This document shows, piece after piece, positions 2,347-15,300 of a stretch of DNA of 64,000 nucleotides. The notes beneath the pieces are model-generated. The model was given only the letters and a program-made list of their open reading frames with translations, ran no database searches and had not been told where the DNA came from. Origin of the DNA: Alphaproteobacteria bacterium (lineage in GTDB: Bacteria > Pseudomonadota > Alphaproteobacteria > Rhizobiales > BM303); assembly GCA_024275895.1 (NCBI GenBank), contig JAJRYE010000025.1, forward strand, positions 16,066 to 80,065. The letters run 5' to 3'. The position numbers and the translations under genes were made by a program. Every line of letters begins with the position of its first letter. The stretch's first letter is position 1.

Positions 2347-4010
2347 TATTGTCAGGGCAGGAGCGGATCGAGGCTTATACCGCTTCAGGGATATGGGGCG
2401 GCGATACGCTGGATGGGTTGCTGCGCCGCACGGCGGCCGAGGCGCCGGACAGGCTGGCGTTGATCGACCCGCCAAACAAGAGGCACATTATGGGCGAGGC
2501 GCCCTTGCGGCTGACCTATGGGCAGGCGGACGCTATTGTTGACCATCTGGCGGATACGCTAGTCACTTTGGGGCTGGTGCGCGATGATGTGGTGGCCATC
2601 CAGCTTCCCAATACGGTTGAGGCAGTTTTGACCATTCTGGCCTGTTTGCGGGCCGGGCTGATCGCCTCTCCGCTTCCCGTTATCTGGCGCGAGCATGAAC
2701 TGGCCACGGCTCTGCCCAATATCGCACCGCGGGCGCTGATCACCTCGCAGCGGATTTTTGCGCATCCCCATGCCGATATGATGCGCAATATTGCCGCCGA
2801 ACTCATGACGGTGCGCTTTGTGTTCGGGTTTGGCAAGGACCTGCCTGACGGTGTCATGTCGCTGGAGGCCCGCATTCCTGAAACGGGGAAAGCGAACAAG
2901 GCCCCGTGTCCGCCGAATGAGGAGAACAAGGCCAATGATATCGCCTCCCTGACATGGAGCGCGGGCAATTCCGATCAGGAATTTACCGTTGCGCGTTCCC
3001 ATAACCAGTGGGTGGCGGCGGGGCTGATGCTTATGCTTGAGGCCAGACTCAGCCCCGGATCGCATATCCTGAACCCGTTTCCGCTCACCTCGCTGATGCC
3101 TCTGGGATTGATGGGGGCGTGGCTGCTCTCGGGCGGCACGCTGGTGCAGCATCACCCTTTTGAACCGGAGGTGTTTCTGGATCAGGTCAGGAAGGAGGAG
3201 GTTGATTTTACCTGTCTGCCGCCTGCCGCCGCTCAATTGTTTGATGAGCAGGGCCGGGGCATTCTTGCGCAGAATTTAACCGCGCTGGGATGCGTTTTAT
3301 ATGCGCCGACAGCGCCGCAATCCCAGGCCTCGCCGCTGGGCGATCTGGCAAGATCGATCATTGATATCAATGTGATCGGCGAGTTTGTTTATCTCGCCAC
3401 GCGGCGTCTTGATGGCCGTCTCAGACGCACAATCGCGTTTGGCGAGATTAACCGGCCGACCAATTCCCTTGACCGGGTAACGCTGGCGGAAACTCAAGTT
3501 TCAGGCTCGGTTTTGCGGGGGCATTTTGCCGCCGGCAAGCTGGCTGTCCGCAGCCCGATGATGTTCGACAGTTACTTCCCCCCGGCTCTGGACCGCAGTG
3601 GCGATGAACGCCTGCGCTTTGACAAGGACGGCTTTGCGCTAACCGGCATCAAGGCTCTGGTGGTGAATGATGCGGAAAAAGAGATTGAATTGCTGCATGG
3701 CGGCGTTGAAACTTTCCAGCATGGCGGCGTGCCGGTCGCCGCGGGCGAGCTTGACCGTCTGTATTGCGCCTGCGAGGCGCTTTCAGATGCCGCGGCTCTT
3801 CCTGTTGATGATCCGGTTCTGGGGAGCCGGATACTGGCCGCCGTCGTGCCCAATCCGGGGATGAGCATCAGCTTTGAGGAATTCAAGGACTATCTGATCG
3901 CGCGCAAGGTTGCGCCTTATAAAATTCCCGATCGTCTCATTACGGTCAAATCCATCCCGCGCGGACGGCGCGGCGAGGTTTTGCGCGACAAGGTTCTGGA
4001 TCAGACATGA
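2343..4010 (+). CDS. AMP-dependent synthetase/ligase (acyl-CoA synthetase family)
   Basis: ORF 2322..4010; start at 2343 overlaps the upstream stop (ATGA). Full-length ANL-type layout, C-terminal KVAPYKIPDRLITVKSIPRGRRGEVLRDK; degenerate phosphate-binding loop. Confidence 0.75.
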   Translation: MILSGQERIEAYTASGIWGGDTLDGLLRRTAAEAPDRLALIDPPNKRHIMGEAPLRLTYGQADAIVDHLADTLVTLGLVRDDVVAIQLPNTVEAVLTILACLRAGLIASPLPVIWREHELATALPNIAPRALITSQRIFAHPHADMMRNIAAELMTVRFVFGFGKDLPDGVMSLEARIPETGKANKAPCPPNEENKANDIASLTWSAGNSDQEFTVARSHNQWVAAGLMLMLEARLSPGSHILNPFPLTSLMPLGLMGAWLLSGGTLVQHHPFEPEVFLDQVRKEEVDFTCLPPAAAQLFDEQGRGILAQNLTALGCVLYAPTAPQSQASPLGDLARSIIDINVIGEFVYLATRRLDGRLRRTIAFGEINRPTNSLDRVTLAETQVSGSVLRGHFAAGKLAVRSPMMFDSYFPPALDRSGDERLRFDKDGFALTGIKALVVNDAEKEIELLHGGVETFQHGGVPVAAGELDRLYCACEALSDAAALPVDDPVLGSRILAAVVPNPGMSISFEEFKDYLIARKVAPYKIPDRLITVKSIPRGRRGEVLRDKVLDQT

Positions 4011-9995: not shown

Positions 9996-11260
9996 TCGTA
10001 ACGCAGCGCCTCCACCGGATCGAGGCGGGCGGCACGCCATGAGGGATAAAGGGTGGCCAGAAACGACAACGCCAGCGCCATGAGCACAACGGTTGTCACC
10101 TCGCCGACATTGATCTGGGCCGGCATTTTGCTCAGATAATAAAGCTCGGGCGAAAATAGCTCGGTTCCGGTCAGCATCGAGATGAACTGGCGCACCGATT
10201 CGATATTCCAGCAAAAAACCAGCCCCAGCATCATGCCGGCAAAGGTGCCGACCACGCCGATGCTGGCGCCGGTGATGACAAAGATACGCATGATGGCGCC
10301 CCTTGTGGCGCCCATGGTGCGCAAGATGGCGATGTTGCTGCTCTTGTCCTGCACCAGCATGATGAGCCCCGAGATGATGTTTAGCGCCGCCACCAGAATG
10401 ATCAGGGTGAGGATGATAAACATCACATTACGCTCCACCTCAAGCGCGCCGAAAAAGGTCTTGTTGGTCTGGCGCCAGTCGGTGATGTAAACCGGTTTTT
10501 GAATCGCATGCTCCACCAGCGCCCGGTAATCATCCATGCGCTCGGGGTCTTCCACCATGACCTCGATGGCGGTGACGGCGTTTTGCTTGTTGAAATAAAG
10601 CTGGGCCTCGCTTAACGGCATGAAGATGAGAGAGGCGTCGAATTGCGACATGCCGACCTCGAACACCGCGGCGACATTATAGGATTTGATGCGCGGCGAG
10701 GTGCCAAAGGGGGTCACGGCTCCGCGCGGGGCGACAAGGGTGATCTGTTTTCCCGGCTCCAGCGCCAGGGCGGTGGCAAGGCGCGAGCCGATGGTGACGC
10801 CTTCGCCGGAATCAAAATTGTCCAATGTGCCCTGGCGGATATTTTTGGCTACCGAATCAAAACCTCTCAAATCCGCCTCGCGCATGCCGCGCACCATAAC
10901 GCCGGTCGATGCCGTGCGCCCGGTGGCCAGTGCCTGCCCCTCAATCATCGGGGTGATGGAAGTGAGGCCCTTGATGCCCTTCATGCGTTTGACCACATCG
11001 TCAAAGCCGGTGAAGGGGCCTCCGAGTGCGTTCACCATCATATGACCGTTGACGCCTAGGATTTTATCGATCAGATCGGAGCGAAAGCCGTTCATCACCG
11101 CCATGACGATGATCAAGGTGGCAACGCCGAGGGTAATGCCGAGAAAGGAAAACCCGGCGATGACGGAAATAAAGCCTTCCTTGCGCCGCGCCCGCAAATA
11201 GCGCAACGCCAGCATCCACTCAAATCGCGCCAGTGGACGGGTTTTTGTGATTGTGCTCAA
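9992..11260 (-). CDS. lolC: Lipoprotein-releasing system permease LolC/LolE family
   Basis: [49 protein letters not shown]-terminal [22 protein letters not shown]; overlaps lolD. Confidence 0.92.
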
Positions 11261-12591
11261 GAGGGTGCCTTTTCCTGACTCAGTTTGTTCAGCGCCGCAT
11301 CAAGCGAGAGTGTCTCGCGCGCGCCGCTCTTGCGGTTTTTTACCTCCACCTCGCCGCTTTTCAGGCCGCGCGGGCCGACGATAAGCTGCCAGGGCAGCCC
11401 GATCAGGTCCATGGTCTTGAACTTGCCGCCAGCGCGCTCAGAGGTGTCGTCATAAAGCACGCCAATGCCGGCATGCCCGAGTTTTTCATAGAGCCCTTCG
11501 CAGGCCGCATCGGTTTGTGCATCACCTGATTTCAAATTTATCAGCCCTACCTTGAAGGGGGCAACCGATTCGGGCCAGATAATTCCGTGTTCATCATGGC
11601 TCGCTTCAATAATCGCCCCCACCAGGCGCGAAATGCCGATGCCGTAGGAACCGCTCTGGATATTGACCGGTTTGCCGTCAGCGCCCTGAACCGTGCAGCC
11701 CATGGGTTTGGCGTATTTGTCACCAAAGAAGAAAATATGCCCGACCTCGATGCCGCGCGCGGCGATGCGGCTCTCTTCGGGGACCTCGCGTTCGAAACGG
11801 GCCGCATCATGCATCTCATCGGTAGCGGCATATTTATCCGTCCATTTTTTGATAACGGGGGTAAGATCGCCATCATAATCGATATCGACGGGCGGGGCGG
11901 GCATTTCAATCAGATCGCGATGGCAAAAGACTTCCGATTCGCCGGTCTGGGCCAGAATGATGAACTCATGGCTGAGATCACCGCCGATGGGGCCCGTATC
12001 GGCAGCCATGGGGATGGCGGTCAGCCCCATGCGCTTATAAGAGCGCAGGTAAGAGACAAACATTTTATGGTAGGCATGGCGGCCTTCTTGCGCCGAGAGG
12101 TCAAAGGAATAGCCGTCCTTCATCAAAAACTCGCGGCCGCGCATGACACCGAAGCGCGGGCGGATTTCATCGCGGAATTTCCACTGGATATGATAAAGGT
12201 TGCGCGGCAAATCCTTGTAGGATTTGATCGAGGTCCGGAAAATATCGGTGATCAGTTCTTCATTGGTGGGACCGTATAGCATCTCGCGCTCATGGCGGTC
12301 GGTGATGCGCAGCATTTCCTTGCCGTAATCATCATAGCGGCCCGAGAGTTTCCATAAATCGGCCGGCTGGATGGTCGGCATCAGCATTTCGATGGCGCCG
12401 GTTCTGGCCTGTTCCTCCTCGACGATCTTCTGGATTTTCATCAACACCGCATAGCCGAGCGGCAGCCAGGAATAAATCCCGGCACTGGCCTGACGTACCA
12501 TGCCGGCCCGCAGCATCAGGCGGTGTGAGGCGATCTCGGCCTCCTTGGGGTTTTCCCGTAAAATGGGGAGAAAGTACTTTGATAACCGCAT
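11257..12591 (-). CDS. proS: Proline--tRNA ligase (short bacterial form)
   Basis: [53 protein letters not shown], class II motifs; 444 aa. Confidence 0.95.
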
Positions 12592-12728: not shown

Positions 12729-12757
12729 ATGACACCGGATGAGGGATGCGCTATTAT
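12729..12757 (+). promoter_or_regulatory. Sigma70-like promoter of ncRNA candidate (ATGACA-17-TATTAT)
   Basis: -35 ATGACA at 12729-12734, 17-nt spacer, -10 TATTAT at 12752-12757. Confidence 0.6.
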
Positions 12758-12763
12758 GCCGCA

Positions 12764-13000
12764 CATAAAGAGAAGGTCTGAAGATCAGGATCTGGCGGGA
12801 TGTTATTGCAACATGGCTCTGGATCGTGAAGCTGGGGCCCAGAACCTGGGAGCCAAGACTCCGGTATCGGTGTGGTGATACGTTATTCACCGGAACCATG
12901 TAGGCACAGGCGATGTGCAGTTTACTGCCCGCTGCGTCTGAACAGGAAAAATAGAGGTTAGAAACCTCAAACAGCAAGGCTCGCGGCCTTGCTTTTTTTT
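12764..13000 (+). ncRNA. Candidate structured non-coding RNA (~237 nt), family not assigned
   Basis: No convincing ORF; promoter immediately upstream; internal hairpins (ATGTT-ATTGC-AACAT; CCCAG-AAC-CTGGG; GCACA-GGCGA-TGTGC; GAGGTT-AGA-AACCTC); ends in an intrinsic terminator. Confidence 0.6.
12973..13000 (+). terminator. Intrinsic terminator
   Basis: AGCAAGGC-TCGCG-GCCTTGCT followed by an 8-T run. Confidence 0.88.
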
Positions 13001-13164: not shown

Positions 13165-15300
13165 ATGTACATCAATCCACTTTCCGGTTCCTTGCCCACG
13201 CTCAAGGTCACGCACCGTCTGGCCGCCGGTTTTTCTCTCATCGTCATTCTGCTTGTCACGGCGGTTCTGGTGACGTTGTGGGAGGTGAAAATCATCAATA
13301 CGGCGACCACACGTATTCAGGAACTGCGTATGCCAACGGCGAGCGCCAGTGCAAATCTGACGACTGATATCGAGGCTTCGCTGGCCGCGCTTCGCGGCTG
13401 GATGCTGACCGGAAATGAAAAATTCAGAACCGAGCGGGCGGGAGTCTGGCGCGCAATCGAGAAGACCAAAAGGAAAATAGATGCGCTTTCGGAAAAATGG
13501 ACCGATCAAAAAAATATTGAGGCCTGGCAGGAGCTCAAAAAGATAGTCGCGGAATTCAAGGTCGCCCAGTCCAGGGTGGAGGCCATCGCCAATTCCGTTG
13601 AAGAGCAACCGGCAACCCGGATTCTTGTCGATGAGGCGGCGCCGCGTGCGGCGGTCATGGTGCAGAAGATAACCGAGATGATTGATCTTGAACTGGCCAA
13701 AAACAATTCGGGTACGGGCGGTGACAGGGTGCAGTTTTTGGGCATCATGGCTGATGTGCGCGGCACACTTGGGCTGGCGCTGGCGAATATCCGCGCCTAT
13801 CTTCTGACCGGAGACAGGAAATTCGAGGAAAAATTCAATAAACTGTGGGCCAAGAACAAGCGCCGTTTTGCCGATCTGGAAAAAGCATCCGGCATGATGT
13901 CGCCGGCCCAAAGGGAAGCTTTCAATATCTTCTCCGAGAAACGGGCAGGGTTTGTGCCGCTGCCGTCGAAAATGTTTACGATTCGCGGGTCCAAAAAGTG
14001 GAATATGGCCAATTACACGCTTGTCACCGAGGCGGCACCGCGGGCCGAGAAAATCCTCACCATTCTTATTGGTCCCAAACAAAAAGACGGTTTGCATGCC
14101 GGTGGCATGAGAGACGATCAGGTCAGATTGCTTAACAACGATACAGCGTTGGTGGCAAAAGAAGTGTCCTTGCTGACAACAGTGTTGTGGGCGCTTCTGG
14201 GCATCGGCATAGCCGCTGGCGGAGCCATCGCCTTTTTCACCTCACGTTCCATTGCGGGGCCGCTGGTCAGAATGACCACGGCCATGCGCAAGCTTGCCGA
14301 TGGCGATCTGGAAGTGGAAATCCCGGCGCGGGAGCGCAAGGACGAGATCGGCGATATGTCCAATGCGGTGCAGGTGTTCAAGGACAATGCCATCCGGGCC
14401 AGGGCGCTTGAGGCTGAACAGGAACAGCAAAAACTTCGTGCCGAGGAAGAAAAACGCCGGATGATGCATGAGCTTGCCGATGATTTTGACGCCAGTGTCG
14501 GCGGCATTATCGAAACCGTATCGGCCGCTTCAACGGAGTTGAACGCCACCGCCCAGGCGATGTCGAGCATTGCCGATGAAACCAGCAATCAGTCCGCCGC
14601 GGTTTCCGCTGCGTCGGAAGAAGCGGCGAGCAATGTGCAGACCGTGGCGGCGGCGTCCGAGGAGATGTCGCAATCCATTGCCGAGATCAACCAGCAGGTC
14701 TCCCAGGCTTCCGACGCCGCCAAGCAGGCGGTGATGGAAGTTGAGAAAACCGGGGCCCAGATGGAATCCCTGGCCGCCACGGCGGAGACGATCAGCGGCG
14801 TCATTGGAATGATTTCCGAGATTGCCGAGCAGACCAATCTGCTGGCGTTGAACGCAACGATTGAATCGGCCAGAGCCGGTGAAGCTGGCAAGGGGTTTGC
14901 AGTTGTGGCCAGTGAGGTCAAGGGGCTGGCCGGACAAACCGCCAAGGCGACTGAAGAGATTGTGTCGCAGGTCAACGAGATTCAGGAGGCCACCAAGCAG
15001 GCGGTTGTGTCGATGACGGATATCGGCAAGATTATCAAACAGGTGGACGAAACCTCGGCGGCCATCGCGGCGGCCATGGAAGAGCAGGGCGCCGCGACCC
15101 AGGAAATCGCCCGCAATGTGCAAGAGGCCGCATCGGGCACCGAGGAAGTGACCCGCAACATCACCGGCGTCAATCAGGCCTCGCAGGAGGCGGGGGCTGC
15201 GTCAGGCGAGGTGATGTCGGCGGCGGGCGAGCTTTCGCAGCAATCGGAAAAACTCAAAGCCGAGGTGGACCGGTTCATCGCCCAGATCCGCACCGGCTGA
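13165..15300 (+). CDS. Methyl-accepting chemotaxis protein
   Basis: N-terminal TM, long periplasmic helical region, HAMP, and MCP hairpin [38 protein letters not shown]. Confidence 0.95.

What the first reader, a model, noticed from the sequence alone, without database searches (positions are those of the whole stretch)
12729..13000. Unassigned ~237-nt ncRNA with near-consensus promoter and perfect terminator
Seen: ATGACA-17 bp-TATTAT, several stable hairpins, a GAGGTT-AGA-AACCTC stem, and AGCAAGGC-TCGCG-GCCTTGCT-T8, in an intergenic region between divergent proS and an MCP gene. No plausible ORF. It lacks obvious tmRNA, RNase P or SRP RNA motifs. It may be a 6S-like RNA or a lineage-specific sRNA.
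Basis: partly seen in the sequence, partly recalled or inferred. Interest (0 to 1): 0.62.

Follow-up and report, generated by a model that had tools for sequence, protein, structure and literature searches.

The report
Divergent αr9 small RNA beside proS
The stretch is a real small-RNA gene, an extremely diverged relative of a known bacterial regulatory RNA (αr9) that normally sits next to the gene proS; in its relatives this RNA carries a near-perfect antisense of another regulatory RNA (αR8), which suggests what the αr9 family does, but in this organism that antisense site has been lost.

Summary
Window 12729-13000 (+) has a σ70-like promoter, about 238 nt without a plausible gene, and an intrinsic terminator, between divergent proS and an MCP gene. 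It is not 6S: a canonical 6S RNA lies elsewhere in the same genome. It is best explained as a highly diverged ortholog of the Rhizobiales sRNA αr9 (SmrC9/Sra32/SmelC289, RF02343). Reasons: same divergent position next to proS; the best αr9 match of both this genome and its only sister; a promoter/5'-end profile built from relatives picks 12729+ as the top site of the 64 kb; the same GCAAGGC terminator stem. Rfam itself misses it (26.4 bits, cut-off 45).

Following the family gave a new functional lead. In 29 of 30 relatives tested, the αr9 core (CCAAGUCUUGGGAGGA) is strongly complementary to the seed region of the sRNA αR8/MmgR, often 20-29 nt with one mismatch. That resembles Caulobacter CrfA, an αR8 sponge. 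I found no report of this for αr9. In the window's genus the core is reduced to CUGGGAG, complementarity is at shuffle level, and no canonical αR8 was found. Five other genomes keep the core without a detected αR8, so the co-loss is suggestive, not proven. What this diverged copy now does is open.

The parts
12729..12734 (+). -35 hexamer ATGACA of the RNA promoter
   Evidence: the profile of 30 proS-divergent promoters built without the window scores best here of all 64 kb on both strands (22.9 bits, next 13.3)
12752..12757 (+). -10 hexamer TATTAT (17-nt spacer)
   Evidence: sequence from just before here to 12776 is 97% identical in sister genome G001
12763..13000 (+). predicted small RNA, about 238 nt, diverged ortholog of αr9 (SmrC9/SmelC289); start inferred 6 nt after the -10 box, not mapped
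   Evidence: no expression data
12763..12776 (+). conserved RNA 5' end ACAUAAAGAGAAGG
   Evidence: identical in G001; matches the family 5' end CAUAAARRGG; score reached by 0.02% of window positions
12836..12856 (+). eroded core GGCCCAGAACCUGGGAGCCAA at the homologous position of the αr9 core GGUCCAAGUCUUGGGAGGAAA; keeps UGGGAG, lost the rest of the anti-αR8 sequence
   Evidence: best core-profile position in the window RNA (position 72) and in G001 (position 68), each weak on its own (p = 0.09 and 0.15); aligned there by MAFFT
12954..12968 (+). small hairpin GAGGTT-AGA-AACCTC
   Evidence: not conserved in G001, so probably not essential
12973..13000 (+). intrinsic terminator, GCAAGGC stem plus U8
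   Evidence: the stem shows compensatory changes across the family
11257..12591 (-). proS (prolyl-tRNA synthetase), divergent neighbour that marks the αr9 locus
   Evidence: Pfam PF00587 and PF03129; proS divergently next to 29 of 35 model-found αr9 genes in other genomes

Best explanation
The feature is an independent sRNA gene, the ortholog of αr9 (S. meliloti SmrC9/Sra32/SmelC289), so diverged that Rfam does not call it. SHOWN by sequence: promoter, 5' end, terminator and proS-divergent position are those of αr9. SHOWN by computation for relatives: the αr9 core is a near-perfect antisense of the seed and following nucleotides of the sRNA αR8 (suhB/MmgR). INFERRED: in the family, αr9 pairs with αR8, probably on Hfq, and takes it away from its mRNA targets, as the sponge CrfA does in Caulobacter (about 0.6). 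INFERRED for the window's genus: this pairing was lost, most plausibly with the loss of canonical αR8, and the RNA is kept as a Hfq-type trans-acting RNA with a changed partner, or is decaying. I favour retained transcription with a changed partner (about 0.5), because the promoter, the first 14 nt and the terminator are kept while the body has been replaced.
For: Position: all published SmelC289 relatives but one lie next to proS (PMC3927594; SMc01933/proS, PMC2780559). αr9 genes found by Rfam or covariance model without using proS are divergent from proS in 29 of 35 loci. Genome-wide, the best RF02343 match in G000 and in G001 is this locus (26.4 and 24.3 bits), and so is the best match of my model R1, trained without the genus (28.6 against 22.1 next; 28.0 against 17.6 next). 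Promoter/5'-end profile: top site of 64 kb. The sister genome has the same gene in the same place with a different downstream gene, so it is autonomous. Sponge idea: 29 of 30 relatives pair as well as or better than all but one of 100 shuffles (median z -4.9) and matched partners pair better than re-dealt ones (0 of 5000); up to 23 nt without mismatch and 29 nt with one; partner changes in step in G025 (UAAAC/GUUUA) and G006 (UUGAC/GUCAA). SmrC9 binds Hfq (PMC2848018). CrfA precedent: PMC12559287.
Against: The covariance-model matches to the window are mostly the 3' half with the terminator, and terminator-only hits are common (an αr35 search gave E about 0.003 in the same genome). The defining core is largely gone (p = 0.09 and 0.15). 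No expression data. The window RNA has no complementarity to its own αR8-like RNA (z -0.4 to -1.0) or to canonical αR8 (z +0.7). Five genomes (G003, G010, G016, G043, G046) have a canonical αr9 core but no αR8 at E <= 1e-4, which weakens a strict pairing of the two. In one Rhizobiaceae-like genome (G023) the αR8 complement (14 nt, one mismatch) is no longer than that to AbcR, αr7 or αr35 (12-16 nt). The permutation test does not correct for shared ancestry.
Confidence: 0.72

Rival explanations
1. 6S RNA or a 6S-like RNA polymerase inhibitor.
For: Length and overall base-pairing are not impossible for 6S.
Against: No RF00013 match here at E = 10; a canonical 6S with 54.6 bits lies at G000:C132.
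Confidence: 0.01
2. A new RNA unrelated to αr9 that arose in the same intergenic region.
For: The body is about 43% identical even to the sister genome and the αr9 core is eroded.
Against: Promoter, first transcribed bases, terminator stem and position all match αr9 orthologs from other families; both genus members give their best core score at the same family position.
Confidence: 0.15
3. A decaying relic: promoter and terminator still stand, but the RNA has had no function since canonical αR8 was lost.
For: The anti-αR8 site is gone in both genus members and canonical αR8 is not found in either; the body evolves without visible constraint.
Against: 31 nt around the -10 box and the 5' end are 97% identical and the terminator 88-91% identical, while the neighbouring coding DNA is only 77% identical: selection still seems to act on transcription.
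Confidence: 0.3
4. A transcribed leader with an attenuator for the downstream MCP gene.
For: The RNA reads towards the MCP gene at 13165.
Against: The gene after the terminator is different in the sister genome while the RNA stays beside proS; Rfam shows no riboswitch.
Confidence: 0.04
5. αr9 is a general mimic of Shine-Dalgarno sites that soaks up several anti-SD sRNAs (AbcR, NfeR, αR8), not αR8 in particular.
For: UGGGAGGA in αr9 also pairs with UCCUCCCA of AbcR, and stretch lengths are similar in G023.
Against: In most genomes complementarity runs on through AGACUUGGGCC of αR8 (20-29 nt); ar15/AbcR was found in only one of 12 genomes tested; matched αR8 partners pair better than re-dealt ones.
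Confidence: 0.3

Closest known systems
αr9 sRNA family (Rfam RF02343; SmrC9 = Sra32 = SmelC289 of S. meliloti)
   Same: Divergent from proS, own σ70 promoter (RTGACA-17-TAnnnT), AUAA-rich 5' end, intrinsic terminator with GCAAGGC stem
   Different: About 238 nt instead of 149; 26.4 bits against a cut-off of 45; core CCAAGUCUUGGGAGGA reduced to UGGGAG; internal body not alignable
CrfA sponge of Caulobacter (PMC12559287)
   Same: αr9 of relatives, like CrfA, has a G/A-rich element complementary to the αR8 seed
   Different: CrfA is a proven sponge induced by carbon starvation; αr9 is untested, homology of the two RNAs was not tested, and the window copy lacks the complementarity
6S RNA (RF00013)
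   Same: Small intergenic RNA of similar length
   Different: No match here; the true 6S is elsewhere in the genome
αR8 / suhB / MmgR (RF00519)
   Same: Proposed partner, not a relative; the αr9 profile hits the antisense strand of αR8 genes
   Different: Opposite-sense seed UUUCCUCCCU; the window's genus has only an αR8-like paralog beside a DUF1465 gene

Membership tests
αr9 (RF02343) | Rfam covariance-model score at or above 45 bits | tested here: not met
   26.4 bits, E 0.06; still the best match of the whole genome
αr9 (RF02343) | Gene next to and divergent from proS | tested here: met
   family rule in PMC3927594 and 29 of 35 model-found loci
αr9 (RF02343) | Promoter RTGACA-17-TAnnnT and AUAA-rich 5' end | tested here: met
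   top site in 64 kb with a profile built without it
αr9 (RF02343) | Terminator with GCAAGGC/GCCUUGC stem | tested here: met
αr9 (RF02343) | Core YAAGUCUUGGGAGGA (GGGAGG invariant in the 28 aligned relatives) | tested here: not met
   only UGGGAG kept, p = 0.09
αr9 (RF02343) | Binding to Hfq | not testable with these tools
   shown for SmrC9 in PMC2848018
αR8 sponge (CrfA-like function) | Complementarity to the αR8 seed of the same genome above shuffles | tested here: not met
   window z -0.4 to -1.0, G001 z +0.6 to +0.9; met in 29 of 30 relatives
αR8 sponge (CrfA-like function) | Lowers αR8 level or activity in the cell | not testable with these tools
   needs bench work
6S RNA (RF00013) | Covariance-model match | tested here: not met
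   none at E 10 here; canonical copy at G000:C132

The most novel reading that the evidence does not exclude
αr9, a Rhizobiales sRNA known since 2007 and without an assigned function in the papers I could read, is a dedicated antisense sponge of the αR8/MmgR regulator, and the window's genus is a natural experiment in which canonical αR8 and the anti-αR8 site of αr9 disappeared together.
Probability: 0.45. Interest if true: 0.7.

Novelty: new variant of a known kind. Interest (0 to 1): 0.5.

Why it matters
The window element shows how far a positionally fixed sRNA can diverge: promoter, 5' end, terminator and neighbour stay while the working core is lost. More important, tracing it showed that the core of αr9 is an extended antisense of αR8 in nearly every genome tested. 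A review (PMC7143759) describes the αR8 member MmgR as a carbon-storage regulator without a known direct target, and a 2025 study (PMC12559287) found an αR8 sponge in Caulobacter. If αr9 is the Rhizobiales counterpart, one experiment in S. meliloti, Kaistia or Methyloceanibacter could give αr9 a function and MmgR an antagonist.

Tried and rejected
6S, other Rfam families and riboswitches: no match. The sub-threshold αr9 hit was first treated as terminator noise, since αr35 gives similar weak hits; position and the promoter profile overturned that. The 27-nt 5' motif as a wider marker: only in the genus (2 of 398 genomes). AbcR as partner in the window's genus: ar15 not found in G000 or G001. 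Pairing of the window RNA with its own αR8-like RNA, for example GUCUGAACAGG near 12937: no better than shuffles and not kept in G001. Whole-length duplex energies against other sRNAs: uninformative because they ignore folding of each RNA. Consensus folding of 28 orthologs gave only the terminator stem, so I claim no conserved internal structure.

Full report
OBSERVATION. The predicted RNA is about 238 nt and folds better than shuffles (z -2.5). Consensus scans alone would be weak evidence (3 promoter-like sites against 0.8 expected), so I looked for conservation.

SISTER GENOME. The window belongs to a draft genome (G000, 86.7% complete); among the relatives searched only one other genome of its genus, G001, was found. 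That it lies in the order Rhizobiales in the wide sense is inferred from its closest proS relatives. G001 has the gene in the same place beside divergent proS. Thirty-one nt from the -10 box into the transcript are 97% identical and the terminator 88-91%, while the body is about 43% identical. The downstream gene differs (MCP here, another gene there), so the RNA is an independent unit tied to the proS side.

NOT 6S. RF00013 does not match here at E = 10, and a canonical 6S (54.6 bits) lies on another contig of the same genome.

IDENTITY. I collected 80 proS loci. Rfam αr9 (RF02343) matches above its cut-off in four of 20 scanned, always divergent from proS and 300-700 nt upstream. Papers place SmrC9/Sra32/SmelC289, the founding αr9, at SMc01933/proS (PMC2780559; PMC2245857) and report proS next to all relatives but one (PMC3927594). 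Relatives that Rfam does not score show the same layout: RTGACA-17-TAnnnT, CAUAA-rich start, AAGUCUUGGGAGGA core, GCAAGGC terminator. In 35 αr9 loci found by covariance models, without using proS, 29 have proS divergently next door. In G000 and in G001 the genome-wide best αr9 match is this very locus (26.4 and 24.3 bits, cut-off 45), as is the best match of my own model R1, trained without the genus (28.6 against 22.1 for the next; 28.0 against 17.6). These matches cover mainly the 3' half, and weak terminator hits are common, so I made an independent test of the other end. A promoter and 5'-end profile of 30 relatives, built without the genus, ranks 12729+ first of the 64 kb on both strands (22.9 bits, next 13.3), and the transcribed part alone is matched as well by only 0.02% of positions. 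The conclusion is a diverged ortholog of αr9.

WHAT THE FAMILY DOES. The core of αr9 relatives resembles the reverse complement of the αR8 (suhB/MmgR, RF00519) seed region GCGUUUCCUCCCUAGACUUGGGCC. In 30 relatives with both RNAs, 29 pair at the core at least as well as all but one of 100 shuffles (median z -4.9), and matched partners pair better than re-dealt ones (0 of 5000; shared ancestry not corrected for). Stretches of 20-29 nt with one mismatch are common, and G005 and G025 have 23 nt without any, G-U pairs counted as matches. Partners change together in G025 (αR8 UAAAC, αr9 GUUUA) and G006 (UUGAC, GUCAA). The αr9 model even hits the antisense strand of αR8 genes. In Caulobacter the sponge CrfA binds exactly this seed of the αR8 RNAs SisA-D (PMC12559287); that paper says no direct pairing of MmgR is known. 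SmrC9 binds Hfq (PMC2848018). I found no paper that links αr9 with αR8 (the library lacks most subscription journals). I therefore propose αr9 as an αR8 sponge in Rhizobiales (about 0.6), by inference from sequence only.

THE WINDOW'S COPY. Here the core is GGCCCAGAACCUGGGAGCCAA (12836-12856); in G001 GGUCCGGUCGCUGGGAGAAAC. Both are the best core positions of their RNAs and lie where the family core lies, but each score is weak (p 0.09 and 0.15). Neither RNA pairs with its own αR8-like RNA or with canonical αR8 better than shuffles. No canonical αR8 is found in either genome; what is found is an αR8-like paralog beside a DUF1465 gene, 31.8 and 34 bits. Loss of the target and of the anti-target site together would fit the sponge model. 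Against a strict link, five genomes (G003, G010, G016, G043, G046) keep the αr9 core without a detected αR8 at E <= 1e-4; three of them are drafts below 93% completeness, two are essentially complete.

MECHANISM FOR THIS COPY. Shown: transcription signals and 5' end are far better conserved than the body. Inferred: a Hfq-type base-pairing RNA with a changed partner (about 0.5) or a relic (about 0.3). The conserved 5' end ACAUAAAGAGAAGG is the most likely functional element left.

VERDICT. The gene is real by comparative evidence and not 6S. It is a diverged member by descent of a known family whose defining core it no longer has: a variant of a known kind. The chief value is the testable αr9-αR8 hypothesis.

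Noticed in passing
L171 (G001:C231:465-544) and L172 (G000:C132:22288-22366): An αR8-like paralog with seed GACGCCUCCCUGUUAGACUUC beside a DUF1465 gene; G041 (L183) has it in addition to canonical αR8.
   Followed up: partly
L014 about 2868-2990 (minus strand): After the RNA terminator of G001, a GAAC-N7-GAAC motif resembling the alphaproteobacterial SOS box precedes a 34-codon ORF with a hydrophobic stretch (MKVYLKDIAEFSALTLFGAMVMVWICVLGGAG), possibly an SOS-induced small membrane protein.
   Followed up: no
G003, G010, G016, G043, G046: αr9 with canonical core but no αR8 found at E <= 1e-4; either a diverged αR8 or another partner.
   Followed up: no
L262 (G019): The αr9 match lies on the same strand as proS instead of divergent.
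   Followed up: no
Most αr9 cores: The single mismatch to αR8 is nearly always at the same central base (U opposite U), which might protect the duplex from cleavage or serve another partner such as AbcR (UCCUCCCA).
   Followed up: partly
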